A DNA stretch of 64,000 nucleotides, taken from positions 1 through 64,000 of the forward strand of contig BDIU01000283.1 of the NCBI GenBank assembly GCA_002118135.1, given 5' to 3'. Every line of letters begins with the position of its first letter. Position 1 is the first letter of the stretch. Under the pieces are notes generated by a model. That model ran no database searches. It was given only the letters and a program-made list of their open reading frames with translations, and was not told where the DNA came from. This DNA comes from Trebouxia sp. TZW2008 (lineage: Eukaryota; Chlorophyta; Trebouxiophyceae; Trebouxiales; Trebouxiaceae). Shown here one piece after another: positions 1,429 through 62,490 of the stretch. The position numbers were made by a program, and so were the translations under genes.

Positions 1429-4400
1429 TCAATAACTAGAGACAGCGTCTGCAGTGCTTGAGATAGCTACATAAGATGTTCTGACAGGCGCACAAGGGCT
1501 GACGCTCTCTGTATAATTCCAAGCACGGTTCCATTCTGTATGTGTGATACCAAAGGGCGCAAATGTGAGCAGTTGCTGCTGAGTGGGATAGCCATGCTGC
1601 TCTGCAAGGTAGTTCCAGATGGCTTCCTTGTACTCAAAGCGTGCATCAACATTGACCAGCATCTGAGCAGCCTGCTTGATGCTGAACACCTGCACGGAAA
1701 AATGCGACATGTATCAAGTAAGTCTACCACTGTCATCAGTGTTTGACTAGGGCATCATTTTTGATGAAGCCCATTGCAGGCTTGTATGCTTGGACAGGGG
1801 CTTGTCATAATGATGTGTACATTTGCAATGCTCTCCTTGTGTGAAAATTACAGAATTTGTTAATGCTGTATGAGGACAATCACTGTATGCGTGCTGTGGC
1901 CTTGCAGTTCTGCAAAGCTTGTGGCTCATCAAAGTACGCGTGAACACATTCCTGCTGCAAGCTTTCTGAGGTGTGAGGTGTGAGTTGTAAGCTGCATAGC
2001 ATAATCACAACGTTACCACCGCAGATGCATTGGTACTGTTGTAAACACACACTGTTGAGCGCTCTTCTATCCGAGTTTGCCGTGCATACAGTCACTTCCC
2101 TTTGTAGGGACACTCAATGCTGGGAAATACTTGATGTAAGGATAAGCAACTGGTACTCAATCACTGCATTCTGACTGCAGTGGCACCTCTGAACACAGAC
2201 AGATTGACATAAGGACAATTTACATGGCACCAAAGCAGTTGCCGCAAAGAGAAGTCATTGCATAGGCATTGAAGGGAATGTCTCACCCCCAAGTACATAG
2301 CCCAGCCAAATCTGATCCTGAAGTGAATGTCCTCAAGAGTGTTGTCTTGCAGTCGCATGGCTGCACCAATCATCCTCATCACACCATACATTGCTTTTCC
2401 ATCATGCTGTTGCGCGTTCTTCAAATCTGGAGTGCGCTTTGCCTCTAGCTCATGTCTCCTAAGGAAGTAGACTCGCCGCAGAAACATCAAGTCCTGCACT
2501 TGCTCTTTTGATAGGTTCAATACCTCCTGCATAGAAAGCAAGGCCAGTTTATCTGCTTGTTGAATGCTGCTGAATGATCTGGACATTTACACAATGTGCA
2601 CATTGGTCTTTGTTGATTGCGTTGACATCTGTGCCCGCGCAAATGCCAGGTAACAGGTATGCCTCACCCTGTTCCTGTAGGCCATGTAGCAGGCTTGTTT
2701 TATCACCCAAAGGTGGGCAGACAATGAGGCCAGCACCGTGACTGCTCGGACAAACCCGTACCTACTTGACCTGGCCTCAGCCCAAAGACCGTTGATCTTG
2801 ATGTTGTTTCATGCATGCTGGGCAACTGCTATCACCCCGTCTCACATGTATAAAGTACGCAAGCAGCCCTATATTGTGCCATTCTGGATCACATGCATGA
2901 TCATTCACAGCTGGTGAATGAATGCTGTAGATGGTCAGCAGAGGCTCTAAATTGCAGCAGGGGGTTACTTTGAGCTGATCACTAGCACAATACATTTGCA
3001 GAGTCATTTGCCCTCTTTAGCAGGCATACAGACATACAGATGTTGATCAAAAAGCAGTCTTGGCACAGCTTGCAGCTGCTTACCACAATGTACTGAACTT
3101 GTCTGTGTAGGTCTTGAGGCAAAGGCGGTGGGACTGTGCTAGCCTTGGCGCTATTGCCACTAAATGTAAAGCCCAGGCTGAATGCTCTGAAGCGCAGTGC
3201 TTCAAGCGTCAATTGGCACAGCCTGCTGTCTGCTGCGCAATCCTCCTCCTCTACAGTGCTTGCTAGCAATCTCTTCAGCTCTTGTTGATAGTCCTGAGCA
3301 CATGATCACTGCCACTGTGCAAAGGTATGAAGGTTGTAAGGTTAAAGATCTGCAGTAACTGATGTCGCGTAGCGTCACCATGTTTTTTGGGAAAGGTATG
3401 ACAAAGCAAAGTGTGAGAGGAAGTTTGGAAACGTACATTTCTCTGCTGTGAGGGCAAAAACAGTGACAATTCAGTGTGTAGTTGTGCGCCTTACCTGCCA
3501 TAGTGATACAAATTGCTGGGAAGGCATGCTTTGCACGTTCTGGAAACTGATTTCCTGTTCTTGACCAGGTAAGGTGATGGTCAAGGGGCCCTCAGCAAAG
3601 GGGTCATTGCGTGCATCTGCTCGTGCCTGTAAGCATGAAACTTGGTATGATCATCAATTTGCTAATCAAATGGATATAATGAGTGACGCAGACTGCTGGA
3701 AAGGCATGCTTTGTGCATCCTTGAAGCTGATTTCTTGGTCTTGACCGGGTAGGGTGATGGTCAAGGGCCCCTTAGCAAAGGAGTCATTCTGTGCATGTGC
3801 TCCTGCCTGTAAGCCTGGAACACAGTATGATCATACATCAACGGACCATATGTATATTTTGAGTGACACAAACTGCTGGGAAGGTATGCTTTGTGCTTTC
3901 TAAAGGCGACTTGTGCTTGACCGGGTAGGGTGATGGTCAAGGGGCCTTAGCAAAGGAGTCATTCCGTGCATCTGGTCTTGCCTGTACGCATGAAGTATAG
4001 CATGATCATAATGATAGTAATGACTGATCACACTTTACAGCACATGTGCCAGGTGTGTGTGGCCAAAGTCATATCTCGCCAGGCTGGTTATAGCATGATA
4101 GCAATGACATTTGTGTCATATACATGTATGACGATTTTACCACTGCGAGCATGTGAACATGTATGTCTGTCAGCAGGCATGACCCTCAGCTGACTGCACA
4201 AAGCATGATGCACCAGTAGGATGTTTGTGTGGGATTTGAAACAGCCTTTTCTAGGAAAGTAGTTTCAGTTCATCAGCTTTGGGAGAGCGTATTCACAAGC
4301 ATTTGACTGACTCAGGTCTTTATGCTGAAGAGACCAAACATGGTGTTAAAAATGGTCAGCTCAGGCTACTGGAGCTGCTGGTGCCACACCTGTTGAAGTC

Positions 4401-5814
4401 TGCCTCAAAGGCCAAACAAGTTGCTGCATTGGAGACATAGTGCTTTGCTTGATGCAACATGGACGCACTTGCTTCAAAGCTCTTGAGCTTCAAACCACAG
4501 TGACCAACCTTGGCTGAAGCCTAGGTATCATAGCTTCGGCTTGTCCCAGCATACACCTAGTCAGTTCACTTGGTGCATCATGTGCATGATTGCTGCATGA
4601 CAGAAAATGGGCATGCTTGATTCTGCGAGCTGTGAATGGCATTTGCAAACCTTGGCTGAAGCCTGGATAGTAGCTTCGGCTTGCTGAAGCTTCATTTGCA
4701 GCTCCTGTCTTTGCAGCTTCAGCTGCTCCAGCTCGGTTGTTGTACTGGCTAGCATGTTTTGGGTTGCCTGTGCCTTTGCCTGCAAATGCAGACAAGACAA
4801 TGTTCTGTCTTTGGAAGCAGGCATTGACATCCTTGGCTGAAGCCTGGATGATCGCTTCAGCTTGCTGAAGCTTCATTTGCAGCTCCTGTCCTTGCACTTT
4901 CAACTGCTCCAGTTCAGTGGTCGTATTGGCTAGCATGTCTTGAGTTGCCTGCGCCTTTGCCTGCGAATGCAGAGATCACAGTTGACTTGGCAAACATGAT
5001 GTCAATACAGATATGACAGTTGTACTGGCTAACGTATTTTGTATTGCTTGTGCTTTGGCCTGTAAGTGCACACAATGATCTTGTACTGGCCGATATGTTC
5101 TGCACCTGTCTGCGAATGCAGACGTGACGGTGGTCTTGATTGTTGGCAAGCACATTGTGTGTTGCCAGTGCCTTAAGACAAGGAATCTTGTTGGCTAACA
5201 TGTTCTGCACAATTTGTGCCCCTGCCTGCAAATGCAAACACGACACTTGTCGCAATGTTGGCATGTTTTGCACTGCCTGTGTCTTTGCCTGAACATGCAT
5301 ACATGATAGAAGTCTCAATGCTGACTAGCAGGCTCTGTGTCGCTTGAGCCTTCCCTAAGGATGTACGGGGTTTAGTTTTCTGAAGGCAGTGTTCTTGTCA
5401 AGAGCCAGTACAAGCATTGAATGAAAGCGCGTTATGCTGGTATACGCATCAAGATGATAGTTTTCAAACCTTCTGACGCTCACGAAACTTGCGTTGGTAT
5501 TCCCGACTGTTGTACCGCTTCTCTTGAACAGGTTGCAAACTGTAAGCTCTTGACTGCACTGCTGAGGAGTTGGCAGGACCAGCTGTAGCTGTGGCTTGAC
5601 CTTGGGCAGCAGCTGGAGACTCTGCGCTTCCACTACTCGGCCCTCCTGCCACGTCATGCTGTGGAGACTCTGGTGGGAGCTGTGCAGGGAGCTGTGCATC
5701 AGCCCAGGTCTCGTTGTAGCGCGGATCTGTGCTTGCTGTTGCGTCGTGAAATAGCAAGCCAGACTGTTCAAGCTCTGGCAAAGAGAAGTTCAGTTCGGGT
5801 GGAGGTGCGTCCAT
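1429..5814 (-). CDS. bZIP transcription factor, seven exons, 474 aa
   Basis: Exons (5'->3'): 5814-5470, 4779-4651, 3626-3495, 3293-3084, 2775-2668, 2526-2287, 1689-1429; every junction is phase 0 and the total of 1425 nt ends in a stop. Exon 1 has an acidic, Pro/Ala/Gln-rich N-terminus, as in activation regions, and ends in the basic region (SREYQRKFRERQK, residues about 103-115). Exon 2 is the leucine zipper, with Leu/Ile at heptad spacing. The basic region resembles the fungal Yap/PAP1 and algal QRxFRERQK type, but the usually invariant Asn aligns with Ser. The C-terminal exons (LFLRRVYF-like and IKQAAQMLVNVDARFEYKEAI segments) have no named domain. A nuclear DNA-binding role is inferred from the bZIP. 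Acceptors of exons 5 and 6 are the least certain; exon 2 has a near-intact duplicate. Confidence 0.75.
3640..3995 (-). repeat. Two decayed tandem copies of bZIP exon 3 inside intron 2
   Basis: Near 3670-3808 an acceptor-flanked copy of exon 3 stays open for about 41 residues (GPLTITLPGQDQEISFKDA core) but has lost the donor. A second copy near 3850-3985 is frameshifted (SFAKAP then stop). Both carry the same intron flank as the real exon at 3495-3626, so exon plus flank was duplicated as one unit. Confidence 0.8.
4490..5355 (-). repeat. Tandem copies of the bZIP leucine-zipper exon boundary
   Basis: Seven or more copies of the boundary (TGCAG acceptor followed by GCAAAGGCACAGGCAAC-like exon start) can be read on the minus strand between 5355 and 4490. 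Copy 4779-4651 is intact. Copy 4960-4832 is open for all 43 codons, but its donor is shifted 3 nt (exon to 4829). A third near 4512-4560 keeps only the exon 3' end and donor. The others, upstream toward exon 1, keep only the acceptor and about 10 codons. Confidence 0.85.
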
Positions 5815-6978: not shown

Positions 6979-9900
6979 CTACAATGTGACACTCAAGGGG
7001 TGTGTTGATGTAGGCCATTCCGGCAAGACAGCTTCTATGAAACTGATCAGTTGTTCAGCAATATTGGCATCTGCTGCTGCACTAGGATGTGACGAACACC
7101 AATTAGTCAATGGCATATTGACAGCATTCAGCTGAAGGTAGTGTACATTAGTCATGCCTTCAGTTTGCGCCGCTGTGTACAAGCTGCTCATATACTGCAG
7201 ATATGTGGTTGACTGTGTCTGATTCAGAACACCTTCTAGCAGCTGCTCTAAGGGAAAGACCTGAATGACGATTTGAGGATTGTGAAAGTCTTCGTTGATC
7301 TGCAAATCCAGTCAAAAGCACTTCAGCATTGCAATTTCCAGCTGTATCTATGCGAGTCAGTCAGGTGCACTTCTGCATTGATAGTCTGCAGACATAAGCC
7401 AGAAGCTCTTCAACATTGCACAGTTGCAGCAGCCAAGAATTTCAGCCAAAGCAACCCTGTCTTCTGCTTTTTGTGCTGGCATGCACAGATACACCACAAT
7501 CACTAGTGATAGTCATGCTGTCATACGCAAACAGCAATGCACTCGATGTCATGCCGCAATGCTTTTGCAGTCTTTGTTGGTGTCACGATTAGCTGCAGCT
7601 ACAAACGCATGTGCTGCATGGCATCTGCAAATGCTATTGCAGCCGCACATCAGTGTGATGCATGCCATCTGGCGTGAGTCAGCGCCATGACGATAGTGGG
7701 GACAATCGCTTGCAAAGTTGCAGCAGTAGCTTACAGCGTTTATGAAATTGATGGTGTCAGACAGCCAGTCATCCAAGTCCGGAGGTGCAGTGTGGAAGTC
7801 ATTTGTCCCTCCAGCCAGAATAACGACCTGCGTCACAGCCGTAATGATACATGAGGTCAGCATAGCTGATTGTGTTCATGATCCTGATGCTGGCAGACAG
7901 CTGATCATCCAGGTCTGGAGTTGCAGTGTGGAATGCGTTTGTTCCTCCAGCCAGAGCCACAACCTGCAGCACAGCATTGTGGGCGTTCAAAGGATGATAA
8001 GCTGTAGTTGTTGACTTCCCTGAGCTACTGCACAATATGCTGGCCTTGAAAAACCTCAGGCCCTGCCCTGATATGCTTTTGGCTAAGACAGGTGCCATTC
8101 AGTATGGAATTTTTGCAAGTATCAAACATGTGTATGTATGAGTGCATGAACATGTATATCAACCTATGTGATGTGATCATGCACAATATGATTTGCACTA
8201 TCACAGAGTAGCCTGAGGAAAGCGATTGCTGTAATCAGAAGTGATAAAGCTGTTATCACCAGCCATGATCATCTACAAATGGGCACTGATCACATAGCAT
8301 TCACGCATGGACTCACCTCAGGAATCCAGCTGCTGTTATCAGAAGTGATAAAACTGTTGTCATCAGCCATGGTCATGGATGGATTCATGCACAACAGTGC
8401 CAGAATGAGCATTTATTTGCAAGTATGTACTCACATGGGATCCAAACACGAACTCACCTGAGGAATCCAGCTGCTGTTACCAGAAATGATGGAGCTGTTG
8501 TCACCAGCCACCTGCCTGTCAAAAAGCTGAATGTCTTGAGGATAGACCCCTTCTGCTATAGAAACTGGAACCGTTGGGGTTTCAGCAACCAGTGCTTCAG
8601 CATTGGAGTAAGTGGCAAGGCCAGCACCAGACCATGCAATTACCTGCAGCACGTTGACTTGTCAAACAAAAGCATCTTGTTTCTTTTGCACTCGTTTGAC
8701 CCAATACTGATTCAAATTGGAATATGTGCCTAGGCTAGCACCCAGGCGGTCACCTGCAATCATGTCAAGCAGCAAAAACCAAAACGTAAGGCCTACAATG
8801 GAAGTGGAATGGTTGACTGTTCAGCAACTAATGCGTCAGCATTGGAGTATGTGGCTAGGCCAGCGCCAGACCATGCAAACGCCTGCGGTGCAACAAATCC
8901 TACAGTACCAAGCTTTATGGCAGTCGGAGGGATCAGCCTATGCTGTCAGCTGTTATACCATCAAATTCTGTAAGCACAAGCAAACAAGCAGCCAGGGACA
9001 GAAATGGACACACACAATGTTGTACTGGAGCAGTCAACTGGTTAAAGACATTTGTTTGCTCCAGTATCAACATAATTGGGCCTGCTGAACCTGTCTAACA
9101 TGCATGTTTGAAGAAGTTTTTTCTTTTTGTGCATAAACATACACACACACCTATGTATGACTTGTGCTCAGCTGCTTGTCTTCACTTGACTGCTTGCCTG
9201 TGAGTTGTGATGACAGGAACTGCGGCCCACCAGCCCATCAGTCATTGACTTGTACTGCTTAAGCATGCTCAATGCAGCTCGGTATGGAGACACAAGCACT
9301 CTTGTGTTCCAGCCCACAGCACTCAGTTCTGGTGTGCTTAGTATCCACTCACCAGTCATCACGTTATTTTACTCTCAAACTGTCATCAGTTTAGGGTGCA
9401 GCCGCAGCATAAGATGTATCCATCAAAACCGTCATGACAAATTGACTCACCTGAAAGTCAGCTGTAAAATTGGCTGCTGTCAGTGGCCCCCAGGAAATTG
9501 CATTGTTCTGAGAGTCAAGCTCAGGGGTGCACACTTTGGTGACTGGGTTGCAAGCAGTCTTGTTGCACATTGTTGTGCCTCCAGTGTTTGCAAATCCGAC
9601 TGTGTAGGAGTCACCTGCATACAAGCAATCCCAGCTTTTATGCTGAAGTATTTGCAAGACCAATCCTGTATGCGGCGCCTGCCAAGAGATGATCCCATTG
9701 ACTCATGTTGGAGTGTAAGCAACGGTGCTGATCAATGTGGGGTGTGACAAGACAGCAAGTAAATTGTCATGTGCAGTGTATAAGTTGAAGCTTGTGGGTG
9801 CATTACAACTGAATCTTGCTGCTTTGCAATGGTTTTACATTGCAATGAGGCAAGCAAACACGTTGCATGCTTTGGGTGCAACACAAACAAACTTATGTTG

Positions 9901-11122
9901 GGAACTTAGTCGGGCAAAAGGCAGCAAGCCCCATATCTTCCGCCTTCTGATGTGTGCACACCTGATGCTTATGCACCTCACAATGACGACAGTCAGCTCA
10001 CAATTACACAGAAAGCTTGAGCTGTAATCACACAACCTTGCTGAAGAACTTCACGGCAAACAGAGTCAGCTCACAAACACAGTGAATGCTTGTGCTGTAA
10101 CCACTCAAGCTTGCTTCAGAATTTCATATGGAAACCACATTCAGCCCGCAAATACACAGGATGCTTGTGCTGTAAACATTCAACCTTGCTTGACAAATTG
10201 GCTCACCTATGAACATGATGCGTCGCCCTGTCAAAAATGCTGGTGGCAGGGCTGGTGCCACAAAGCTGCATACACCACCACAAGATTGTCATTTCACGTG
10301 AGGTTTACTTTTAGATGATACATAGATTGTGCCCTTAAGCTGAAGCACTGCAGCTGTTGCAGAAGAGTTATGGATGAATGGTAAAGCTTGATGCACAGCA
10401 GAAGAAGCATGAGCTTCCTGTGAAAGGGTTACCCAGGGGACCATTTGTGCTTGCGCCAATTGTTTTCATCAACAAGTTGCTGCATTTGTTGCAAGAAAAC
10501 GCTTTCTCGCTGAAGAACAGCAGATGCTCACCTGCCACTAGGCGCAACTTCCAGTGATTCTAGATACACCTGTCCATAGCTGGCTTCACTGATCTTGGTG
10601 ACTGCGAGGTTGTGCTGGCCTGAGCAGCAAAGAGGTATAAGGTGCGATTCATATATCTGGAAGCATTCAAGGGTTGTGCGTTACGATCCGGTTGACAGCT
10701 TGACCAAAAGTCGCTTCTGTTGACAATTTCAGACGCGTCGCAGGAATGCAGTGAACGAGCATTGCAGCAAATCGCGTGTCACCTGCGCTCAAGTTGCTCA
10801 CGCTCCAGTGTGCAACGGTCGCATCCGGAGTTGTTGTTGCAGTGCCCACTTGCGCTCCGTCGACATAGAATACGAATCGGCTATAAGCGTTGTACGTGGG
10901 ACTCGGAGGTAACGCGGACAAGGTCGCATTGATTTCTGAGCCATTGAAGGACGTGTAGACGCTGCTGGCTGGCCAGGAGAACAAAACGGGCGCGACGCCT
11001 AAGCCTGTCGCCTCGTTGACGACCCCTCCGAACCGCCCTTGCAGCAAAAGGTGGGCAGGCTGGGCCAGAACATACAACGCAAAGTGCGCAAGTCCGCAGA
11101 TTGCTATCAGGACAGCGCGCAT
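6979..11122 (-). CDS. Secreted SGNH esterase of carbohydrate-esterase family 2 type, seven exons, 416 aa
   Basis: Exons: 11122-10783, 10619-10532, 10265-10207, 9614-9451, 8643-8458, 7827-7735, 7299-6979; phases match and the total is 1251 nt. The N-terminus (MRAVLIAICGLAHFALYVLA) is a signal peptide. It is followed by the jelly-roll domain typical of CE2 (FSWPASSVYTSFNGS, LSAGQHNLAVTKISEAS), then an SGNH hydrolase domain: GDSYTVG (nucleophile Ser), VIAWSGAGL (block II), GGTNDF (block III Asn), and SHP with the catalytic His near the C-terminus. CE2 enzymes deacetylate polysaccharides outside the cell; the substrate here is unknown. The Asp that usually sits before the His motif is Ser, compatible with the Ser-His dyad described for some CE2 enzymes. 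It shares a 196-bp divergent upstream region with the methyltransferase. Confidence 0.88.
7871..7963 (-). pseudogene. Decayed duplicate of the esterase block III exon
   Basis: This 93-nt copy of exon 6 (7827-7735) lies just upstream in the transcript. The acceptor at 7965-7964 is intact and the frame is open, but the catalytic-block motif reads GGTNAF instead of GGTNDF, and the donor GT has become AT. It is best read as a dead exon copy, retained or skipped inside the intron. Confidence 0.75.
8205..8905 (-). repeat. Boundary copies around esterase exon 5
   Basis: Segments near 8211-8275 and 8300-8375 repeat the exon 5 3' end and donor (SSIISGNSSWIPQ-coding). Segments near 8710-8760 and 8810-8895 repeat the acceptor and exon 5' end (VIAWSGAGLATYSNA-coding). 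The copies sit on the intron side of each boundary. Confidence 0.75.
10015..10206 (-). repeat. Short tandem repeats adjoining the donor of esterase exon 3
   Basis: Three related blocks of roughly 60 bp (around 10030, 10090 and 10150, each with an aaccttgctt-like core and a tcagctcac-like or ggctcacc end) sit directly inside intron 3 beside the donor at 10206-10205. Confidence 0.55.
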
Positions 11123-11318
11123 CGTGAGGCCGGCTTGCACAGCCTCGGCGTAAGCGAGCGATGTCTTGTGTGCAAAACTCTCCTTGCAGCAAATTTGTCG
11201 TGGGAAGATAAATCTTGCGTGAGAAGATTTATCCGGTTAGTAATGGCATGTGATGCATCTGGCAGTGTCCTCTCTGCAGAGCGCACATAGTGTCGGCGAG
11301 TCGCCGAACCAACTGCCA
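11123..11318. promoter_or_regulatory. Divergent intergenic region between esterase and methyltransferase
   Basis: Only 196 bp separate the two start codons, which face away from each other, so both promoters must overlap here. The region is richer in CG than the introns. It contains a perfect 10-bp dyad, GATAAATCTT at 11207-11216 and its reverse complement at 11224-11233, separated by 7 nt. Each arm carries a GATA/TTATC core. A shared operator-like site is possible but not shown. Confidence 0.5.
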
Positions 11319-14024
11319 ATGCAGAAGGTGGTTGCACAGCAGTTCAGTTCTGCTGTTGAGGTCACAACAAAGCAGAGATCTGACTGGGACCGGACTACGA
11401 GCGCCTACGCTGAAGTCTGGATCGCCAGAGGCAATGGTGAGCCGGTCTCGCGTCGAATTGTGGATGCCGTGCGAGCGCACTGTCAGGCATATCAAGGTGT
11501 GCCACTTTGCGGCCTCTTACCTCACCCGGCTGAGCATTTGTCATTGCCACCAACTAGTTTGCAGATGGTGCTGGCACCGTGATTTCGGTGCAGGCGGCAA
11601 GAGCCGCATCGTAGACCTTGCAAGCAGCTCTGGCATTCCGGCTGTGCCATTGGCGGAGGCTCTGCCACACGCACAGATCGTCGCAACCGACTTGGCGCCC
11701 TCGGCGATCGACTTGATCAGAAAGCACGCAGAGGCAAAAGGGGTTTCAAACGTCACCGCACAGTCGGCAGATGCGCAGAACCTGCTCGAATTCGGCGACG
11801 ACGCCTTTGCGGCAGTCACATGCAGCTATGGCTTGATGTTCATGCCTGAGCATCAGAACGCTCTTACAGAAGCGTATAGAGTGTTACAGCCAGGCGGATT
11901 GTTTGTGGCAACTGTGTTTGCAGCACTCAACAGCTATCAGTTCGGCTGGGTAAGCTTACATGCTGCCCTGCCTGGGTGCTCAGCATTCTAGTACTACACA
12001 GAATGCAATGCTCTCGCTGGCATTGTATTTAAGAAGAAAATCAGTAACTGTGCCATAGTAGCACTTCACCTGTACGGACTGGTCCTGCCAGAAAACAGTG
12101 CTGAGCCTTGCTGTAGCAGGACTAAGGTCGGCTTTTGGAATCTACGGTGACTAGCCTGCAGTGTTGGACACTCCGAACCACTCTGCCATGACATACAACC
12201 TACAGTGACTAGCCTGCAGTGTTGGACATGTACACCCCAAACCACTCTGCCATGAAACTACAACCGCTTGCAGTCTGTACCACGCCTGTTGTGCTGCATA
12301 GAATGCATCTGAGGCCTACACAATGCAGGACTCTCAATTTGTCACACATTTATGCTGAGTATATATGATCGGTCAGATGGTGACCAGCACAATTCTTAGC
12401 CACCGCTCACCGTTGCAGAGGTTCAAGCAGCTGTTGACTGGAGCAAAGCTGAGTCAGCAGTTCCTGTTGAATGCAGATGTTCAGTCAGCTGGTGACCAGC
12501 AGAATTTTTAGCCACCACTGACTATTGAATGCAGATGTTCACTGTGCCCTTGACCAGCAGAATGTGTAGCCAGCACTCACTGTTGAATGCAGATGTTTAG
12601 TCACTTTGTGTAGTTAATTGCAGCCAACCGTGCATCACCTTCTCAGATCTGCAGCATGCAGAAATGCTGAGTCATCACTTGCTGTTAAATGCAGATGTTC
12701 AGTCAAGTAGTGAAAAGAGTTGCAGGCAATCAACTACCAATGCATCACCCTGCACTCCTTGACGCTTTGGCAAACACGGGCAGCTCACAGAAGGTCTGAA
12801 AGCAGCAGGATTCAGCAGCAGTTAGTGCACAGCATCAGGGTTAAGGGGTACTGAGAGATCACCTACTGTTGACTGCAGATGTTCAGTCAAGTAATCAAGA
12901 GGGTCGCAGGCAACCAAGCAGTGCCTGCATCACCCTGTACACCTTGGCGCTTTGGCAAATATGGACAGCTCATAGAAGATCTGGAAGCAGCAGGCTTCAG
13001 CCAAGTTCAGTGCACAACATACAACCACCCCATGACATGGCGGTTGCCTGACTTGTATGAATTCCAGATTGGTCCTCATGGGCAGTCCAGAGAATTCTTG
13101 GATAAGCTGAAAGCAGCTGGACGGGATGATGTCTACAAGGAGGCCGAACAGGTTTGCACCGTCTGTTTGATTGTGTCAACTTGCTGCATGCTATTCAGCA
13201 TTATTATGCATGTCCTTGTTTTCTTCTGTGATGAGATGTATCGTGCACCTGCGTGCAATCTGGCACATACATCACGGCAATATCATCAGGGCTCAGCAGT
13301 GCTTATGCTCTCAATGCTGAAAGTCCGCAATGTGCTGCGTCGCAAGAAGCTCAAGCTTTGTGCGATGTGTGTGTTGAGCTATACACAATTGTGTATACTT
13401 TGTAGCAAACTGCAACAGCATCATCGAGAACAAGCCAGCCAAACCAAGACCACAAGCAGCAAGTTGATCATCGACAATGCCATCATTGATATGATCAACA
13501 ATTTGAGCGTACGCACCTGCTGCATTTTGTGATTGTTAATATAAGCTGCAGTGCATGCAGCCCGCCACGACCCAGCACAGGTTATGCACCCATCTAGCCG
13601 CCACCTGCTGTCAGAAACATTGCTGCTGATACTGTGTACGCTGATTGGCGTGGCAGCATGAAGCTGTTGCAGACCAGCATGATTTTTTCATACATCCAAT
13701 GCGCAGTGAAGTTGCTCTCAGGAACAATGCTGCTGATGTTGTGCATGCTGATTGGCTTGGACCTATGGAGCTAATGCAGAACAGCATGAGTGCTACACAA
13801 ATTTGTTTGCTGCTTGCTCTCAGGGACACTGCTGCGTAGGTTGTGCATGCTGATTGGCTTGGAGCTTTGAAGCTGTTGCAGACAGAATGTAACTTCTCTT
13901 GCAGGTTCAACTTGACATCCTGAAGGAGAAGGGATGGCTACAAAGCGAGCTTGCTGTGTTTGAGCACAATACTGCATTCATGTACACTGCCATCAAGCCA
14001 CCAAGTTTTGAGATACAGCAGTAA
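11319..14024 (+). CDS. Class I SAM-dependent methyltransferase, four exons, 308 aa
   Basis: Exons: 11319-11496, 11594-11949, 12879-13151, 13905-14024; phases agree and the total is 927 nt. Exon 2 holds the Rossmann methyltransferase core: motif I (VDLASSSGIPAVPLA), post-I acidic residue (IVATDLAP), the AAVTCSYGLMFMP strand and the RVLQPGGLFVATVF segment, typical of the UbiE/Methyltransf_11 group. The glycine loop is Ser-rich (ASSSG) rather than GxGxG. The C-terminal part (exons 3-4) forms the variable substrate region. The acceptor substrate cannot be told from sequence. There is no clear signal or transit peptide. It is divergent from the esterase and convergent with the ankyrin gene. Exon 3 begins with ATG directly after its acceptor, which could mislead a gene caller. 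Confidence 0.87.
12130..12870 (+). repeat. Tandem boundary copies in methyltransferase intron 2
   Basis: A roughly 58-bp duplication lies at 12145-12260. From about 12345 to 12870 there are five or six copies of the exon 3 acceptor region (ttgaatgcagatgttcagtc-like). One of them, at 12690-12830, extends well into the exon and is decayed by frameshifts and a lost reading frame. Confidence 0.8.
13585..13904 (+). repeat. Tandem repeats before methyltransferase exon 4
   Basis: Three units of about 110-120 bp (starting near 13600, 13715 and 13820) share gctgattggc, a trailing gctgttgcag-like end and a ttgctctcagg start. They fill the 3' half of intron 3 up to the real acceptor at 13903-13904. Confidence 0.8.
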
Positions 14025-14546
14025 CATGACTTGAGCCAGAGCTGCTGATAGGTGTGAGCAGACAGCTTGAATAGCCCTTATATAATCTAATCGCAAGCAG
14101 AGGCTTTGCAGCAGATCTGCTCCCTAGAGAATGTGTTGCCTTGCAAAGTGCCGAAGGCAGTGATGTTGACGAAGTTTCTTCCTTCAGCATTTTGCAATGC
14201 AGCCTGCTTGCTCATGATTGACAAAAGACTTTGATTCATAAAGTGCAAGCTGCTGAGCTTTGCAGAGTCAAACAGATCTTCATTCCAAAGAGATGGAGGT
14301 GACTGTCGAACATTTTTGCAGTACAGTGAATATCGTAGGCATTTTGCATCCTCAGGGGGCTGAACAGAGATTGTCTACACCATTGGCAGTAGCAGCGTGG
14401 CAGGTCCATATATAAACAAAATTGGTTGGCACTCTTGCAGTAGATCAAACATAGTTTCAGGCGTGCTGCATCCTTAGAGGGCTCATCAAATATTGTCTAC
14501 ACTATTGGCGGTAGAAGTAGCAGAGTGCCATATGCCTGGATAGACG
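14025..14546. other. Convergent intergenic region
   Basis: This lies between the stop codons of the methyltransferase (+) and the ankyrin gene (-). It contains a partial duplication (ctacac-cattggc blocks near 14375 and 14500, with a tttgcatcctcagggggctgaac-like core near 14342 and 14468). No gene was recognised. Confidence 0.5.
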
Positions 14547-25560: not shown

Positions 25561-25625
25561 CTGGGCGTTATGTTTGAGTAGGAGATGCTGACTTGTGCAA
25601 TTTCAAACGCAAGGATGCAGGTGGC

Positions 25626-25655
25626 CTGCTATTGCATTTCGTCATGCAATAGCAG
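25626..25655. repeat. Perfect 12-bp hairpin
   Basis: CTGCTATTGCAT at 25626-25637 and its exact reverse complement at 25644-25655, separated by 6 nt. Confidence 0.8.
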
Positions 25656-26185: not shown

Positions 26186-26639
26186 AACCTCTGACGTCGT
26201 GGCATTTGTGTGAGAAGGCTCTACTCCAGCTGCTGCAAGTCTGGCGCGTTTGTTGATACATCAGTAATACGTGTCTGGAAGAAAGAGGCAAGAAGTCAAT
26301 GTCTAGGGAGGCAGCTGAGGGTAGGTCAGGGTGTGACTCCTGATGTGTTGCTAGTGCAGTGAGCCATCAATGAAGGCAAGCAATGTCTGCCTTGACATTT
26401 GGCCGAGGCTCATACCATCACACTTGCTCAATAAAGCGTGGATGGTCACATGCAAAAGTGGAGTTTGCCTGTGCTGACAATCCTGTAGTTTTTACGCTAG
26501 ATTTGCACTTTCTAGCACCTGTGCTGTGTGTGTGTGGATCCCCATCACATGCAAAAGTAGAGTTTGGCTGGGTCTGCAATTGTTTCATGTGTGTTTGGGG
26601 AGGGCCGCGCATCAAAAGCCATTGTCTTGTAGTTTGACA

Positions 26640-44800: not shown

Positions 44801-45039
44801 TGTTCAACCCTGTGTCACCTGCGTTGCACCAGCAGTGGTCGTGGGAGTCTTCTTTAGGCCGTCATTGTCTGTTTGTGAGCTTTGTTGCCAGATAGAGCAA
44901 TGACTGCATGGCTGTCGTTCTCTTGTGAAATAGGTTGTTTTGAATGCTCCTGCCATTCTGCATTAATGATCTTGACCCATTTCGCAGCTCTGGCAGCTTC
45001 TGAGGCAGCCACCCCTTCAGGTATGGTTGCTGTCTAACG

Positions 45040-45070
<31 letters not shown>

Positions 45071-51000: not shown

Positions 51001-54000
51001 GCATGTCATGGTTGAATGTGTGTGGCACAGTGTCAAATGCACACAGAAGATTTCCTGCGACAGTTTGAATCGATATTTGCATGTAAAAAGGCAAAACTGC
51101 AGAACCTGCAAAAAAAGCCACAAGATTCAGAAAAGAGGCATGGCTTGTTCTGCAGGATGAAGGATGGACAGAAGGACATTTTCTACATGGCGGCAGACTC
51201 CCTTGATGCAGCTTCATCAGCACCGTTTGTTGAGCGCCTTGTACAGAAAGGCTATGAGGTAAGCTTGTTACCCCTCCCCTATATTCAAGTTTCCTGTTTG
51301 GCTGCTCGGCTGATGCTACATGCCTGATGAGTGCGCTGTAGTATCGTGGCAGACCATGCAATGTGTGCTGGTCTCATGCAGTGCCATTGCAGTGAAACAT
51401 GCTGTGACTATGTTGCAAAACAGGTCTTGACTGTGTCGCTTTGAACATGATTGATGGAGCTTGTGTCTCAAGTGACTGTTTAAAGCTTGTGCACTTAATG
51501 CAGATTCTGTACATTTGCAAAGCTTTTGCAATTGCAAAACTCTTGTACCTGATCATGTAGCTTTTGTCCCTAACAGAGCCGATAGACAAGATTTTCATCC
51601 AGAATACAGCAACATCAATTTTTGTCAATGTGTCGAGTTTTGCAATGTTTGTGTAGGTCTTGTACCTGACAGAGCCTATAGATGAGGTGGCTGTTCAGAA
51701 TCTGGCTGATTACAATGACAAGAAGTTCGTTGATGTGTCCCGGGAAGGAATCGACCTAGGCACAGATGAGCAGGACAAGAAACAGGTGAGAAACCATACA
51801 CTGTTGAAGCAATTGCAATTGCAGATCTTTCCTTCTGTGTTGTTTGGAGCTGTGCATTAATGGGGGCAATGCAAGATGCTACCATCTGCATTCATTCACC
51901 ATGCCTGCAATCTGCCTGTCTGTTGCTGCATTGAATGCAGCCCTGATCATAGACTCCAACTGCTTTCATGCCACCAAAGCCAGACTTTTGGCAGCTTACT
52001 GAGGCATGTGTGCAGTCACAGACAGTGACACCATGGACCCAAGAAATGCGCAGTTTCTTGAAGTTGTGGTGTCCGAGTCTTCGATTACCTATATGAAACA
52101 CAAAGCTCTTCATGTCAGCATAATTCGTAATGCAAGTCAGCACGTGTGGTGCTGCTTGAATGCAGCCTTGGTTGGAGGCAATAACAGCTGTGACACCATG
52201 TCATGGGCAGCTTAGTCAGGCACGTTTGCAGTCACAGACACTGACATCATGGACTCAAGACACATACAATTCTCTTGGAGTTGTGATGTCCGAGTCTTTG
52301 ATGGCATACATGCAACACAAAGCTGCTCATGTCAGCATGCTCAGTCGTACATTTCAGCATGCATGGCGCTGCTCTGACTGCAGCCCTCTTGATAGACACT
52401 GACTGCACATCAATCAAGCCTGGCTATCAGCAGCTGAATAGTGCACGCGTGCAGTCAGAGACGCTGACATCATTGATCCAAGGGGAAGAGGTCAGAGGAC
52501 TTGACTTTTAAGGCTGAAAATTGGTCAAATTGTTAGCGTTGCTTGAATCACCAACAATTCTTTTTAGAGAAATGTTGATTGTGTATGCACAGGCAGAGGA
52601 GCAGGCGCAGAAACTAGCGCCACTGACAAAATAGATCATGAATAGAATGTCCAGTGATGTAGTGACTCATGACTTGCATGAAGAAGGTGCTGGGTGACAT
52701 TATGATTCATACACAACATGCAACTAATGTGTGCGCAGGCAGCGGAAGAGACACAGCATCTAGCATCATTGACAATGTTCATGAAGAACTTGTTGGGTGA
52801 AAAAGTGGAACGACAAATTTTTTCTTACATGTTGGTGATATGTGTTAATGATTACTGATTTATCACTATTGTATGTGCAGGCAGAGGAGCAGACGCAGCA
52901 GCTAGCGTCATTGACAGATTTCATGAAGAAGGTATTGGGTGACAAAGTGGAGAAGGTTGCCGTCAGTCAGCGATTAGCAGACTCACCATGCGCCTTAGTC
53001 ACTTCCAAGTTTGGCTACTCAGCAAACATGGAGCGAATCATGAAGACTCAGGTAAGCTATTAAGCTCATCATGCCTTTGTTAGCAACTCTCTTCCGCACA
53101 TTTTAATGTGTGCAAGGAGGTTTTCCCAGCTCGTAGGCTCCCTTGACAGCTCTTGGGAGCCTTGTGACAAGGAAATTGTTGTTGTCAAAGGACCCTGCTT
53201 GCTGAGCTGAAGGGAAACAACAGTGCACAGATGTTGCAGCCAAGCTTTGCTGTCCTGCGCCATCATTCCTTGATGCATGTTTTCATACAAACAAGAGCAG
53301 ATCAATGGGTGCTTGTTGTATCTGGCGGCCTATATACTGTCTCTTTGGCAGCAACCAGTGAGCACAAGGGCGCTTTCCCTTGAGCTTGGCAAGCAGGCTC
53401 AGTTGACAGCTTCAGGGAGCTATGTGATAAGGGATGCCTGGACTTGAGCAGTGAGCCTGCTTGCTGAGCCAAACGAAATTTATTAGTGCGCATCTGCTGA
53501 AATCAAGCTGCGTCGTCTGGTGTCCATCATTCTTTCATGCATGCTTGTAGTCAAACAGAGGTATGTCAGGACCTGTTGTGCTCGCACCATGCCAGCTGTC
53601 TCTTTGGCAACAGTGAGTGAACACAAGGACAGTTTCACTTTGTCAGCAAGCAGGCTTCTTTGACAGCCTCAGGTGTTCTTGTGACGAGGGAACCTCTCGT
53701 TGGTCAAGGAAGCCTGCTTACTGAGCTGAAGGAAAGTTTCCGCAACATGAAAGCTGCAGCCAAACTGCGGATCATGATGGGCTCAGATGCTTTGGTCTGC
53801 CAAGGAAAACATGCTCGCTGAGCCAAAAAGGACTGGCTGTGGGCAAATGCTATTGCAAAATATACAGCAGCAAAGTCTGCGACCTGTGCTATTGCAAGCT
53901 GCCCTGTTGTTCCACATGTTGCGCATTCAGAACTGCTTTTCAGGAGAAAGTGTACAAGGAGTTCTCCTTGCTGCGCAGCCCGCACAAGCATCACAGAAAT

Positions 54001-55034
54001 CGATATTATGCGCTGATTGTGAATGTGCCATTTCTGCTACAGGCGATGGGTGACAACAGAGCTATGGAGTACATGCGGGGCAAGCGAACCCTAGAGGTCA
54101 ACCCCGACCACCCAGTCATAGCCTCCCTGAAAGCCAGGTTTGACGAGAGCGGTGAAGATGACAAAAACGCAACTGCCATGACAGAGCTGTTGTATGAGAC
54201 GTCCCTGCTCACCAGTGGATTCAGTGTTGAGTCTCCCAAGGAATTTGCCAACAGGTATAGTGAATTGTCTTTGTTGTCAATGCTTGAACAAACCAGAAAA
54301 CTGTCCCCACATTGAACCACCTAATAATCATGACAAAGCTGCTTTGTGAAGCATCCCTGCTTACAAGTAAATTCAGCCTGGAGTCACCCCAGGAATGTGC
54401 GAACAGGTACAGTGATTTGTCTTGGTCACGAATGCTTGAGTCACACAGAAAATTGTCCTCACACTGAACCACTCAATTGCCCTGCCAGAGCTGTGGTAAA
54501 CGCCAATAGGTAAAAGCGTTTGCTGGCTTGAGATGTCTGCACAATGGCTTCAGATATCTCAAGGTTGCGCGCGGTTCTCAAGTCACCTGTTGTCATACAT
54601 TCACATTGGTGAGGCCTGTGTGAAATGTATGGCTAGATCTTTGTTGAGCTTTGTCAGAGTTGTGCAGGGTGAACAGTTTTGTGCCCTGCTATGTGTCAGT
54701 TTCAGCCATTGAGTTGTAGCCGTTGCTTGTTATAATATGCAGAATGCATGCATCGCTGCAGCAGCTTATATGCTCATTGAGATTTATACTGCAGCTGCCA
54801 TGGACTAAGCCAGGTGCATGATATGATGCAGTGTCTATGGCGTGATGTCTGATCTGAACTGTGCTTCTGATGTGCTGCAGGATTTACGGAATGATGTCTG
54901 ATGCTGGTCTAAGCAGCAATGGTGCCTCGTCAGCCGTGCCACCAAGAAGATCTTCTTCTTCAGTACCCAAGTCCACTCCTGCAGTAGACCCAGAAATCTT
55001 GGGCGCTGACCCACAGAACGACCCCTGGAAATGA
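41838..55034 (+). CDS. HSP90C: Chloroplast HSP90 chaperone (HSP90C), 15 exons, 804 aa
   Basis: Exons: 41838-41882, 41965-42207, 42319-42518, 44241-44487, 46613-46758, 47140-47221, 48219-48341, 48961-49107, 50211-50369, 50667-50920, 51156-51258, 51657-51785, 52881-53051, 54043-54254, 54881-55034; total 2415 nt, in frame. Residues 1 to about 80 are an Ala/Ser/Arg-rich transit peptide. The ATPase domain has [38 protein letters not shown] and [15 protein letters not shown]. The middle domain has [20 protein letters not shown] and the dimerisation domain [14 protein letters not shown]. The acidic linker is short and the tail ends DPQNDPWK without MEEVD, excluding a cytosolic HSP90. HSP90C folds and helps import proteins in the stroma. 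Intron 2 has a GC donor. A TGTAA lies at 55334-55338. Confidence 0.96.
42600..42775 (+). repeat. Copies of the HSP90C exon 3 donor boundary
   Basis: Two units of about 80 bp (42640-42665 and 42727-42760 cores) repeat ccatcaccattgagtgagttcctg, the exon 3 end with its GA|GTGAGT donor, directly inside intron 3. Confidence 0.85.
43455..44240 (+). repeat. Array of exon 4 acceptor and 5'-end copies in HSP90C intron 3
   Basis: About six copies of gactacag|GGACACAGG plus up to 30 codons of exon 4 ([20 protein letters not shown]). Acceptor AGs at 43814, 43954, 44097 and 44240 are spaced 140, 143 and 143 bp; two older, weaker copies start near 43475 and 43590. All are disrupted by stops or frameshifts except the last, which is the real exon. 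Confidence 0.92.
44560..45385 (+). repeat. Array of exon 4 3'-end/donor copies in HSP90C intron 4
   Basis: About six copies of the [21 protein letters not shown] end, each usually followed by AAG|GT: near 44575-44635, 44690-44740, 44830-44875, 44985-45025, 45190-45235 and 45330-45380. Preservation falls with distance from the exon. A long C-run with an NN gap lies within the array. Confidence 0.9.
45038..45104. repeat. Poly-C tract with assembly gap
   Basis: Two long C homopolymers are separated by NN at about 45073-45074. The true length is unknown, and the local sequence is not reliable. Confidence 0.95.
45840..46612 (+). repeat. Array of exon 5 acceptor and 5'-end copies, 164-bp period
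   Basis: Acceptor AGs end at 46120, 46284, 46448 and 46612 (the real one), exactly 164 bp apart; an older copy ends at 45963. Each is followed by ATCAGGGAAGATGACACT and about 20 codons of exon 5. The units at 46284 and 46448 differ at only a few positions, so they are recent. Copied units diverge from the real exon after LHLKK and run to a stop. Confidence 0.93.
47315..47370 (+). pseudogene. Decayed copy of the HSP90C exon 6 end
   Basis: It repeats gaggcagccaccaagctgaag...gagacagccgatgccaag|gt, but with an in-frame TAG. It lies in intron 6. Confidence 0.8.
48055..48180 (+). pseudogene. Decayed copy of HSP90C exon 7
   Basis: It repeats nearly all of exon 7 ([13 protein letters not shown], then [14 protein letters not shown]) about 160 bp upstream of the real exon at 48219. 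The acceptor is altered (cacagg) and the 3' part diverges before the donor. Confidence 0.85.
48781..48865. repeat. GC-rich palindromic element in HSP90C intron 7
   Basis: Two 24-nt direct repeats at 48781-48804 and 48842-48865 differ at one base (TACCGGATACC or TACCAGATACC, then CCCCGAAGGGGTA). Between them is a hairpin (GTATCTGGTGCCCCT against AGGGGTACCAGATAC). Its composition differs sharply from the surrounding AT-richer intron. Confidence 0.8.
49995..50130 (+). repeat. Copies of the HSP90C exon 9 acceptor boundary
   Basis: Blocks at about 50008-50035 and 50077-50125 repeat tactgcaggaccagctatcgcgcagccgc with decay, just upstream of exon 9 (50211). Confidence 0.75.
52000..52480 (+). repeat. 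Tandem duplication of about 200 bp in HSP90C intron 12
   Basis: Units near 52005-52195, 52215-52400 and a partial one near 52440 share gtgtgcagtcacagac-ctgacatcatgga and ttgtg-tgtccgagtcttcgat. There is no coding relation to the exons. Confidence 0.75.
52590..52880 (+). repeat. Copies of HSP90C exon 13 acceptor and 5' end
   Basis: Two copies, 52594-52640 and 52737-52805, repeat gcaggcagaggagcag...cagctagc with up to 20 codons of exon 13 ([16 protein letters not shown]). The real acceptor is at 52879-52880; the spacing is about 140 bp. Confidence 0.85.
54325..54520 (+). repeat. Copies of the HSP90C exon 14 3' end and donor
   Basis: The block 54329-54410 repeats [32 protein letters not shown] sequence in decayed form and keeps AACAG|GTACAG. 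A shorter remnant follows near 54480-54515. Confidence 0.85.
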
Positions 55035-60162: not shown

Positions 60163-60253
60163 TTACTCAGCCATTTCTGTATCTTGATTCTCATTGGCTG
60201 CGGCATCATCTGTTGCAACAGCCTCATTCATCACTTGAACATTGGCAAGTGTA

Positions 60254-60284
<31 letters not shown>

Positions 60285-62490
60285 GCTTTAGTAATGGTGA
60301 TGCAAGTGATGGTGCATGTGAGACTTCTCTATGATCAACTCCATCTGCTGTCATGACACCTGACATGTCCACAGGAGCTGTTGCTAGTGCTGAAGATGAT
60401 GGCAGTGATGGTTCAGCCAGGGTTTCTGCAGCTTCAGTAGGGTTTGCGGCAGGCACTGCACCCATGGCTGGCCTGCTCTCAGTCGTATGCTCATCTGAAA
60501 TCTGGTTCATAGCTTCTGCTTGTGTGCTGGGTCTGGTTTTGGCCGGCCTCCTAGATTCTGCCCGCTTAGCAGCTTTTGCCTGCTTTATAGCTTCTGCTTG
60601 CTTGGCAGCTTCAGCCTGCTTAGAAGCTTCAGCAGATGCCGCAGCAGCTTCCTTGTCTGCAATGATCTTCAGGGCATCTTCAGCTGCCCTCCTCTTGGCA
60701 AGGGCCTTATTGGTTGCCCCCACACACCTGTCACGTATAGGAAGTTGTCAGAGGACAAACAAACTAAGTTGGCAAGGGCCTTATTTGTGGCACCCAAACA
60801 CCTGACACGGACAAAAAGCTCTCAGCAAACAGACAAACCAAAATGCTGGCAAGGGCCTTATTGATTGCGCTCACGCACTAAATACACACAAAAAGTTACT
60901 GCCAAAGACAAGCCAGACTGTTCGACCTGACGCAGGTTGACAAGACCTTTGCAGAGGCTATTTTGGACGCTATCTTGTGACCACATGATTGATTTTGTGT
61001 AAAGCTGATTGGGATATGACAGAGACAGCTGATGATGGTTGCTGAATCTGCACCGGTCACTGTCGCACCGTTGCATGGCGCTAGCTATAATGTGAGCAGC
61101 AGCATCTGTGACCAAAAGTGATCACTGCAACATGGCTCCATTCAGCCTAACATGCATGTTTACTTCCTTGTGATAATCATTCTTGACAGTTTCTGAATGG
61201 AGCACTGATAAGATGTTTTCACAACATGGCGCCATGCAGCAGTCAATCAACATGCAGAGTGCAACAGGCTGTCATGTTTTTACTGTGACTCACCGTCCAA
61301 TGATGATGTCCTCCACAACAGCAACAGCATCATACAGGGTTCCCTCCCTTTCATGCCTTTCCCGCCACCGTTGCTGCCACTGCTTCTGCTTCTCCAGCAC
61401 CTGAAATGACATAATCTGATCAAACTTTGAAAGACAGTGTGTGCCCATGCAATGCTTACAGGAATGCAAGTCTCCAACATGTGGCATGCTTTAGTGTACC
61501 CGGGCGGGGGGCCGGGGGGGGGGTGGAGGAGGGGGGGGGTTGTGACTACCCAAATTCTTCAGGGATGCATTTGGATGTGCCATGTTACTGATGTTCTAGC
61601 AGGTGTCTGATTCGAAGCTGATGGCTTACATGAGCAGCATGCACAACAGTTCCAAAATGCAGGTATGCAAACCCTGCAGGGTAATGTCATGGATATCAGA
61701 GCTGTGACTTTCATCTGGCACCGGCACGACAAGATGCATATTTATGCTGCAGACCCTTCGAGCTGAAACCTCTTAGGGTCAACTCTCTACTGATTACTGC
61801 TCTCAAAGCAGCCATTGCAGGCTGCCTCATAAACAGAGGCTGCCGTCATGACGCCTGCGGCGAAGACTTTTCTTCTTCCTTCTTCTATGCAGATGCATGG
61901 CAAGCCCACAAAGGTCTCAAATGCGGGCTCCATGCGGCAATAAGCGCAGCTAAACGGAGCATGGGAGCATGTATGAACGCTGAACATACCTGCTGTGCAT
62001 ATGCAGCAACCTGTTCTTCGGCTTTGTTGCAGCTTATGCACTCAGAAAACAGGTCCAACTTTTGACAGCATACGCAGCACAGATGCCAAACAATGGTGAT
62101 TCCAACAGTCTTCACACTTTCTAGCATGCCAAATAATCACTCTCCAGCATGCCATCATGCAATCATGCATTTGACTTACTAGAAATTGTAATTATTTGGC
62201 AAGCTGTAAAACACAAAAATTTGGCATCTTAGCAAGTGTGAAGAATGTTGTCATCATGCCAAATGCATGCTAGGTCTGGTCACCAGGGTTTACCTGCTGA
62301 GCATCTGCAGCAGCCTGCTCTACAGTCAAGCCTTCTGGGACTTTTCCGCTCCTCTTCTTCTCCTCGGCCTCCTCCATAGGGCTCATGCCCTCAGCCCTAG
62401 GGTTGGAGACTGAGCACACGAATCTAAGCAGCTTGCCGTCCTGCTGAGCCCGCTCGTGAAGGTGACGAATAGGGTGCTTTGGTACAGTTG
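60163..62490 (-). CDS. 3' part of an unrecognised Ala/Lys/Glu-rich coiled-coil protein
   Basis: Exons 62490-62294, 61400-61294 and 60727-60163 join in frame (phases 1, 0 and 2) and end at a stop; earlier exons were not found and may run past the window edge. The first visible exon has a compact segment (RHLHERAQQDGKLLRFVCSV) and an acidic EEAEEKKRSG stretch. The second is a charged helix (EKQKQWQQRWRERHEREG). The last begins with ATNKALAKRRAAEDALKII, continues as a KQAEAAKQAEAIKQAKAAK-type heptad array and ends in a disordered Ala/Pro/Ser/Thr-rich tail. No family is recognised. The (GCT)n-like repeat at about 60255-60285 encodes its poly-Ala part. Confidence 0.6.
60735..60895 (-). repeat. Copies of the last-exon acceptor boundary
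   Basis: Two copies (about 60765-60815 and 60845-60890) repeat the plus-strand pattern ttggcaagggccttatt-gt-gc(c/g)cacc-ac-cctg of the exon start (GATNKALAK-coding), upstream in the transcript of the real acceptor at 60729-60728. Confidence 0.8.
61498..61545 (+). repeat. G-rich tract
   Basis: Runs of 6 to 10 G (cgggcggggggccggggggg onward) could form a quadruplex. It lies in an intron of the minus-strand coiled-coil gene. Confidence 0.8.

What the first reader, a model, noticed from the sequence alone, without database searches (positions are those of the whole stretch)
1429..62490. Introns built from tandem, decaying copies of their own splice boundaries
Seen directly in bZIP, esterase, methyltransferase, ankyrin, FMO, HSP90C and the right-edge gene: the 5' side of an intron holds copies of the upstream exon's 3' end plus donor, and the 3' side holds copies of the downstream exon's acceptor plus 5' end. 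Copies are regular in spacing within an array and usually less preserved away from the exon. Only the outermost sites give an open protein. Inference: introns in this lineage lengthen by repeated local duplication of units that straddle exon-intron junctions, each event also creating spare splice sites. This would differ from transposon insertion or introner elements.
Basis: partly seen in the sequence, partly recalled or inferred. Interest (0 to 1): 0.87.

Follow-up and report, generated by a model that had tools for sequence, protein, structure and literature searches.

The report
Tandem duplications that lengthen algal introns
In this Trebouxia-like green alga, short stretches of DNA (often around 160 bases) have been copied side by side both inside introns and between genes; where a copied stretch crosses an exon edge the intron grows and carries a spare splice site, with no firm sign that the copying is aimed at exon edges.

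Summary
The copies are real. In three genes modelled by spliced alignment (HSP90C, esterase, FMO; 31 introns), 17 of 62 junctions have a junction-spanning copy nearby; reversed-target probes gave 0 of 62. None of 30 testable decoy sites leaves an open frame. Repeat-covered introns are longer (Spearman 0.70). Two arrays gave no matches elsewhere in 68.5 Mb.

The junction-specific mechanism is not established. Local repeats cover 27% of intergenic and 28% of intron-interior points against 18.5% of junctions, and sliding the arrays along the genes gives as many junction hits. Counting each duplicated stretch once, junctions show a 1.7-fold excess over intergenic DNA (interval 0.99-2.84), 2.6-fold in the homology-modelled genes. 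Best reading: patchy tandem duplication of roughly 160-bp units, inside and outside genes, filtered by selection; units crossing one exon edge survive because splicing can use the outermost sites.

Loose end: decoys in homology-modelled genes keep GT/AG in 30 of 31 copies (19.2 expected), but ab initio models do not repeat this (12 of 23).

The parts
41847..55031 (+). HSP90C (plastid HSP90), 15 exons, the reference gene model; outer exons less certain
   Evidence: spliced alignment; exons from 42302 to 53051 placed identically by P0001, P0002, P0006 and P0009, P0003 differing at some; 81% identical to Trebouxia sp. C0009
42502..42781 (+). donor-side copies of exon 42302-42518 (offsets 133 and 225)
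43407..44336 (+). acceptor-side array, copies of acceptor plus 5' part of exon 44241-44487 (offsets 143, 286, 426, about 661, 763)
44428..45387 (+). array holding donor-side copies of the 3' end of exon 44241-44487 (offsets 144, 249)
45523..46693 (+). acceptor-side array of exon 46613-46758, period about 164; the stretch 46113-46680 holds 3.5 copies about 95% alike
   Evidence: 46113-46680 gave no match elsewhere in the genome
46719..47054 (+). donor-side copy of exon 46613-46758 (offset 272)
48035..48309 (+). acceptor-side copy for exon 48219-48341 (offset 157-159)
50066..50252 (+). acceptor-side copy for exon 50211-50369 (offset 128)
52582..52951 (+). acceptor-side copies for exon 52881-53051 (offsets 142, 288)
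54177..54493 (+). donor-side copy of exon 54043-54254 (offset 152)
47415..47638 (+). purely intronic tandem repeat in HSP90C (no exon part)
49255..49557 (+). purely intronic tandem repeat in HSP90C
51906..52482 (+). purely intronic tandem repeat in HSP90C
53088..53766 (+). purely intronic tandem repeat in HSP90C
6985..11131 (-). CE2-like GDSL esterase, 7 exons (outer ends approximate)
   Evidence: same internal boundaries from P0121, P0122, P0123; Pfam CE2_N and Lipase_GDSL
7721..8510 (-). array touching exons 7735-7827 and 8458-8643; donor copy at 141 and acceptor copy at 136
8563..8886 (-). acceptor-side copy for exon 8458-8643 (offset 239)
32396..39597 (-). FMO-like monooxygenase, 12 exons (a last 11-nt exon proposed by P0136 alone was left out)
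   Evidence: spliced alignment with P0136 and P0137, P0138 differing in part; Pfam FMO-like
35832..37646 (-). FMO array over exons 36114-36322 and 36706-36876; acceptor copies at 164, 302, 439, 603; donor copies at 119, 273
37704..38329 (-). FMO array at exon 37959-38086 (acceptor copy at 181)
4638..5352 (-). acceptor-side copies of bZIP exon 4651-4779 (offsets 181, 280, 446, 509), AG present in the four
   Evidence: ab initio model
14986..15533 (-). acceptor-side copies of ankyrin exon 14968-15048 (offsets 199, 402)
   Evidence: ab initio model with ankyrin Pfam hits
12439..13020 (+). array over methyltransferase exon edges (12419-12491, 12726-12793, 12879-)
   Evidence: ab initio model
60695..60863 (-). 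acceptor-side copy for right-edge gene exon 60163-60727 (offset 74)
   Evidence: ab initio model
62462..62646 (-). repeat in the intron, starting 22 nt upstream of right-edge gene exon 62294-62440; does not reach the exon in my model
   Evidence: ab initio model
26598..28827 (.). long array (period about 192) outside any modelled exon
   Evidence: its part 26608-27231 gave no match elsewhere in the genome

Best explanation
The nuclear DNA of this Trebouxia-like alga undergoes frequent short tandem duplication (smallest offset per array: median 162 bp, middle half 140-200 bp among arrays the search can see), followed by expansion and contraction within the arrays and by slow decay. It is patchy along the genome and found between genes as well as in them. 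Inside genes, duplications lying wholly in an exon or doubling a whole exon would usually break the protein. Duplications in an intron, or crossing a single exon-intron edge, leave the normal mRNA obtainable by splicing from the first donor to the last acceptor, so they survive and lengthen the intron. The junction copies are mainly relics of a selection filter on duplications that need no junction-seeking process. Shown: the repeats, the local nature of two of them, their position inside introns, their coverage of non-genic DNA as high as that of introns, and that inner sites give stops. Inferred: the molecular step (slippage or unequal exchange), the filter, and that the spliceosome uses the outermost sites, which fits exon definition.
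For: Intergenic points are covered by local direct repeats as often as intron points and more often than junctions (262 of 965, 300 of 1082, 40 of 216). Circular shifts reproduce the number of junctions inside repeats. Copies lie in the intron in 43 of 51 cases. Decoy use gives a stop in 30 of 30 tested. Repeat-covered introns are longer: Spearman 0.70 (31 introns) and 0.53 (77 introns). Two arrays gave no match elsewhere in 68.5 Mb (that search can miss common or diverged repeats). 0 direct pairs in resampled DNA against 430. A cytosolic HSP90 gene on contig C142 has one array, crossing one donor.
Against: Counting each duplicated stretch once, junctions exceed intergenic points 1.73-fold (0.99-2.84) pooled and 2.56-fold (1.31-4.46) in the homology-modelled genes; for copies of 80% identity or more 2.15-fold (1.00-4.19) and 3.21-fold (1.38-6.80). 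Longer survival of copies of constrained exon sequence may explain part, but less so for young copies. 16 of 22 arrays in those genes touch an exon, against 0.32-0.39 simulated. Circular shifts show a mild excess of edge-straddling arrays: 15 against 12.6 (P 0.12); 33 against 28.4 (P 0.09); ab initio arrays of 80% identity or more 18 against 14.5 (P 0.06). GT/AG kept in 30 of 31 decoys is not predicted by neutral decay. The intergenic class rests on my own gene finder and may hide unmodelled genes.
Confidence: 0.6

Rival explanations
1. Junction-targeted duplication: something about transcription or splicing, such as R-loops or pausing at splice sites, makes DNA straddling exon-intron junctions duplicate preferentially.
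For: Each duplicated stretch counted once: 2.56-fold (1.31-4.46) over intergenic in the homology-modelled genes, 1.73-fold (0.99-2.84) pooled, and 2.15-fold (1.00-4.19) pooled for copies of 80% identity or more; 16 of 22 arrays touch an exon against 0.32-0.39 simulated.
Against: No excess by coverage or of junctions inside repeats by circular shift; ab initio junctions alone 1.41-fold (0.70-2.52); the same repeats fill intergenic DNA; introns of 200-300 bp at the start would give 0.81-0.61 exon-touching arrays by chance.
Confidence: 0.2
2. The copies are partly functional: decoy donors and acceptors are kept because they are used, in nested or stepwise removal of long introns or in regulated unproductive splicing.
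For: GT/AG kept in 30 of 31 copies at 17 junctions in homology-modelled genes, 19.2 expected from other dinucleotides of the same alignments, P 0.0019 with one draw per junction; all junctions pooled 47 of 59, 35.4 expected, P 0.029. Pseudo-sites inside exons of the same genes keep theirs in 194 of 301, inside introns in 143 of 217. bZIP 5 of 5, C142 HSP90 1 of 1.
Against: Not seen at ab initio junctions: 12 of 23, 13.3 expected, and 8 of 15 against 8.1 at those with strong parental sites. Exon-only probes give 26 of 31 by strict position, 21.4 expected, and 16 of 24 at ab initio junctions, 16.5 expected. No RNA data.
Confidence: 0.12
3. Assembly artefact: local duplications created by misassembly.
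For: Assembly quality is unknown; the window holds 2 N.
Against: 139 of 147 arrays have a best blastn pair between 65 and 90% identity and none above 95%; misassembly makes near-identical copies. Some stretches are alike to about 95%, so single arrays could be affected.
Confidence: 0.03
4. Introners or other dispersed mobile elements.
For: Intron-located repeats of 100-200 bp resemble introners in size (recalled).
Against: The two arrays searched gave no match elsewhere in 68.5 Mb; junction units include host exon sequence.
Confidence: 0.02

Closest known systems
[quoted passage not shown] potato RdRp case (PMC4974935, passages read)
   Same: A tandem duplication crosses one intron-exon boundary and copies its splice site.
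   Different: There a new intron arose within the duplicated region; here protein models use the outermost sites and the existing intron grows, in several genes and repeatedly.
Novel intron positions in Drosophila by tandem duplication or sliding (PMC2891723, passages read)
   Same: Local tandem duplication changes exon-intron structure.
   Different: There exonic AG/GY proto-splice sites are duplicated; here existing junctions.
Variable internal tandem repeats in human segmentally duplicated genes (PMC2812944, passages read)
   Same: Tandem repeats at exon-intron boundaries change gene structure and lengthen exons and introns.
   Different: Units average 30 bp in recent paralogues; here mostly 140-200 bp, mostly 65-90% alike, and as common outside genes.
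[quoted passage not shown] recalled, cited in PMC3443670, not held)
   Same: Frequent internal duplications of gene segments.
   Different: I could not read it; its emphasis, as recalled, is new introns.
Stwintrons (PMC8469720, passages read)
   Same: Introns with more than one set of splice sites.
   Different: There two introns are nested and excised in turn; no nested splicing is shown here.
Introners (PMC9860276, search listing and start of abstract only)
   Same: Repeats in introns.
   Different: Introners insert into many genes across a genome; the copies tested here are local.

Membership tests
Tandem genomic duplication altering gene structure | head-to-tail copies of local sequence | tested here: met
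Tandem genomic duplication altering gene structure | duplicated unit carries splice sites | tested here: met
   junction-spanning copies at 17 of 62 junctions; sites intact in 30 of 31 copies
[quoted passage not shown]
   protein alignments use the outermost sites; inner sites give stops in 30 of 30 tested
Introners / mobile elements | similar copies at unrelated loci of the genome | tested here: not met
   (two arrays tested, of 147 found)
   no excess by coverage or circular shift; 1.7- to 2.6-fold when each stretch counts once; per-array excess ambiguous
Stwintrons / nested splicing | internal intron excised before the external one | not testable with these tools
   no RNA data

The most novel reading that the evidence does not exclude
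Duplicated splice sites inside these introns are under selection and used: junction-crossing tandem duplication turns short introns into long ones that are removed in nested steps, or makes regulated unproductive isoforms, so the alga's introns carry selected ladders of real splice sites.
Probability: 0.1. Interest if true: 0.8.

Novelty: new variant of a known kind. Interest (0 to 1): 0.45.

Why it matters
If general, this genome is a ready-made experiment on how a spliceosome ignores near-perfect spare splice sites a few hundred bases from the real ones, and a record of how introns grow without transposons. It also warns gene annotators: an ab initio gene finder takes the copies for extra exons, as mine did in HSP90C.

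Tried and rejected
First gene-finder settings over-predicted introns and were replaced. Before the ab initio counts, 11 exons that were copies of other exons and 28 weak exons were dropped (159 exons, 120 kept). The retention of GT/AG looked striking in the homology-modelled set but failed in the ab initio set; 10 of 11 losses there come from two doubtful models (C269_81504 and C269_130404), which I noticed only afterwards, so I do not count it as replicated. A nucleosome-length reading of the 160-bp mode was not pursued: TRF shows many shorter periods too, and two-copy arrays of short period escape the blastn search. Naming the species by 18S failed (not completed). No DNA of related species was available.
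Full report
What the window is. The window is the first 64 kb of a 246,749-base contig (C269) of a 68.5-Mb, 527-contig genome. Its plastid HSP90 is 81% identical to that of Trebouxia sp. C0009 and its esterase 48% identical to one of Trebouxia sp. C0004, so it is a Trebouxia-like green alga; the species is not identified.

Gene models. I fetched the rest of C269 to 244,000, 50 kb of C1 and 10 kb each of six other contigs (354 kb in all with the window) and later 5.8 kb of C142. I wrote an ab initio gene finder trained on this DNA and a spliced protein-to-DNA aligner. Three genes have homology-based models: HSP90C, 15 exons, boundaries from 42302 to 53051 the same with four of five homologues tried; a CE2-like esterase, 7 exons, with three homologues; an FMO, 12 exons, two of three homologues agreeing. 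Together they have 31 introns and 62 junctions. Another 22 ab initio genes gave 77 introns after 11 exons that were copies of other exons, and 28 weak exons, were dropped. Gene-based tests used 314 kb (C269, C1, C2, C300).

The repeats. Self-comparison of 354 kb finds 430 direct pairs within 2 kb and none in one first-order Markov resampling made in 1-kb blocks; the same search finds 82 inverted pairs, nearly all on C269 by coverage. Direct pairs cover 33% of the window and 34% of the rest of C269, 11% of C1, and 1.5 to 29% of the six other samples; the C142 HSP90 stretch has a single pair. The process is therefore patchy. There are 147 arrays; the smallest offset per array has median 162 bp, middle half 140-200; the best blastn pair lies between 65 and 90% identity in 139 of 147 and above 95% in none. 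Blastn pairs run on into older parts: TRF finds stretches alike to about 95% (46113-46680, 28767-28890), and 19 of 2263 probe points have a copy at 95% or more. Two arrays searched in the whole genome gave no match away from their own place; that search can miss common or diverged repeats.

Copies of splice junctions. Probes of 40 exon plus 40 intron bases find significant copies at 11 of 31 donors and 13 of 31 acceptors, 9 and 10 of them spanning the junction, none in the reversed null. At a stricter threshold with centre-spanning copies, 17 of 62 homology-modelled and 23 of 154 ab initio junctions are hit. Direction is strong: donor copies into the intron in 20 of 23, acceptor copies in 23 of 28. 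Using a decoy instead of the real site gives a stop in 30 of 30 tested copies; one of 31 could not be tested. Over 11 junctions with several copies the nearer copy is the more identical in 31 comparisons and the less in 14; three arrays give 21 against 4, the other eight 10 against 10.

Are junctions special? The answer depends on how one counts. By coverage, no: 40 of 216 junctions (0.185), 300 of 1082 intron-interior points (0.277), 262 of 965 intergenic points (0.272). Circular shifts of the arrays within genes give 22.9 junctions inside repeats for 18 observed, and 42.6 for 40; edge-straddling arrays number 15 of 21 against 12.6 expected (P 0.12) and 33 of 51 against 28.4 (P 0.09); for arrays of 80% identity or more 6 of 8 against 4.7 (P 0.22) and 18 of 24 against 14.5 (P 0.06). 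Because a junction is unique while an array point is counted in every copy, I also weighted points by one over copy number: intergenic 0.106 [0.071-0.149], intron 0.122 [0.083-0.169], against junctions 0.185 [0.119-0.259] unweighted. The ratio to intergenic is 1.73 [0.99-2.84] pooled, 2.56 [1.31-4.46] in the homology-modelled genes, 1.41 [0.70-2.52] in ab initio ones; with copies of 80% identity or more 2.15 [1.00-4.19], 3.21 [1.38-6.80] and 1.65 [0.61-3.56]. Within the same three genes intron points stand at 0.169 [0.123-0.207] and junctions at 0.274 [0.133-0.397]. Longer survival of recognisable copies of constrained exon sequence could give part of this (inference), less so for the younger copies. 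Per array, 16 of 22 in the three genes touch an exon by 10 nt or more; random duplications of the observed unit sizes would give 0.32 on present introns, 0.39 on de-duplicated ones, 0.61 if introns were 300 bp and 0.81 if 200 bp. Introns without repeats in these genes have a median of 250 bp, with repeats 775 bp, so short ancestral introns are plausible but unproven.

Mechanism. I take the arrays to be tandem duplications filtered by selection. A duplication crossing one junction leaves two donors or two acceptors; joining the first donor to the last acceptor restores the normal message and puts all extra DNA in the intron. Wholly exonic duplications break the frame or protein. That the outermost sites are used follows from the protein models, not from RNA; it fits exon definition, in which the shortest exon wins (general knowledge). 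How the DNA duplicates is not shown; constant periods within arrays suggest unequal exchange or slippage. A modest preference for junctions on top of this is not excluded.

A loose end. In homology-modelled genes decoys keep GT or AG in 30 of 31 copies at 17 junctions; other dinucleotides of the same alignments predict 19.2, P 0.0019 if each junction counts once; pseudo-sites inside exons of these genes keep theirs in 194 of 301 and inside introns in 143 of 217. bZIP adds 5 of 5, the C142 HSP90 1 of 1. But at ab initio junctions it is 12 of 23 with 13.3 expected, and with strong parental sites 8 of 15 with 8.1 expected; pooled with bZIP 47 of 59 with 35.4 expected, P 0.029. Probes made of exon alone give 26 of 31 by strict position against 21.4 expected, and 16 of 24 against 16.5 at ab initio junctions; three of the five misses in the first group look like small indels beside an intact site (read by eye). 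It could be selection on used decoys, or chance in three genes.

Against what is known. Junction-crossing tandem duplication has been described: in a potato RdRp gene a duplication across an intron-exon boundary created a new intron (PMC4974935, passages). Tandem duplication is a recognised route of intron gain (PMC3443670 and PMC2891723, passages), and repeats at exon-intron boundaries lengthen human genes (PMC2812944, passages). My ten literature searches listed no paper, among the titles and abstract starts I saw, on tandem duplication as a main source of intron length in algae; most subscription papers are not held, so this is not proof of absence.

Verdict. What remains is a dense local-duplication landscape that lengthens introns and leaves decoy splice sites.

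Noticed in passing
window:60163-64000 and C269 to about 140,000, minus strand: Right-edge gene shows weak (below cut-off) RNase III and dsRNA-binding matches, and a piece at 130-140 kb on the same strand a below-cut-off helicase (ResIII) match; a piece from the model at 81-94 kb matched nothing. Possibly parts of one Dicer-like gene, in the stretch with the densest tandem repeats (49-56% from 60 to 140 kb).
   Followed up: partly
window:45040-45103: A run of about 64 C (87% matches) inside HSP90C intron 44488-46612.
   Followed up: no
314 kb used for gene-based tests: Near-identical copies are rare: 19 of 2263 probe points have a local copy at 95% identity or more; the process may have slowed or the assembly may collapse identical copies.
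   Followed up: no
window:58148-59083: Intronless galactosyltransferase-like gene between intron-rich genes.
   Followed up: no
window:29445-31722: Epimerase-family gene not named in the finding.
   Followed up: no
L024-L025 (C1:26692-32346): Open pieces resembling a retroelement polyprotein; not followed.
   Followed up: no
sampled contigs: Repeat density differs widely between contigs, from 1.5% (C450) to 34% (C269).
   Followed up: partly
C269: 82 local inverted pairs also exist in the 354 kb, covering 5% of C269 and almost none of C1, C300, C100, C200 and C400, 5% of C450.
   Followed up: no
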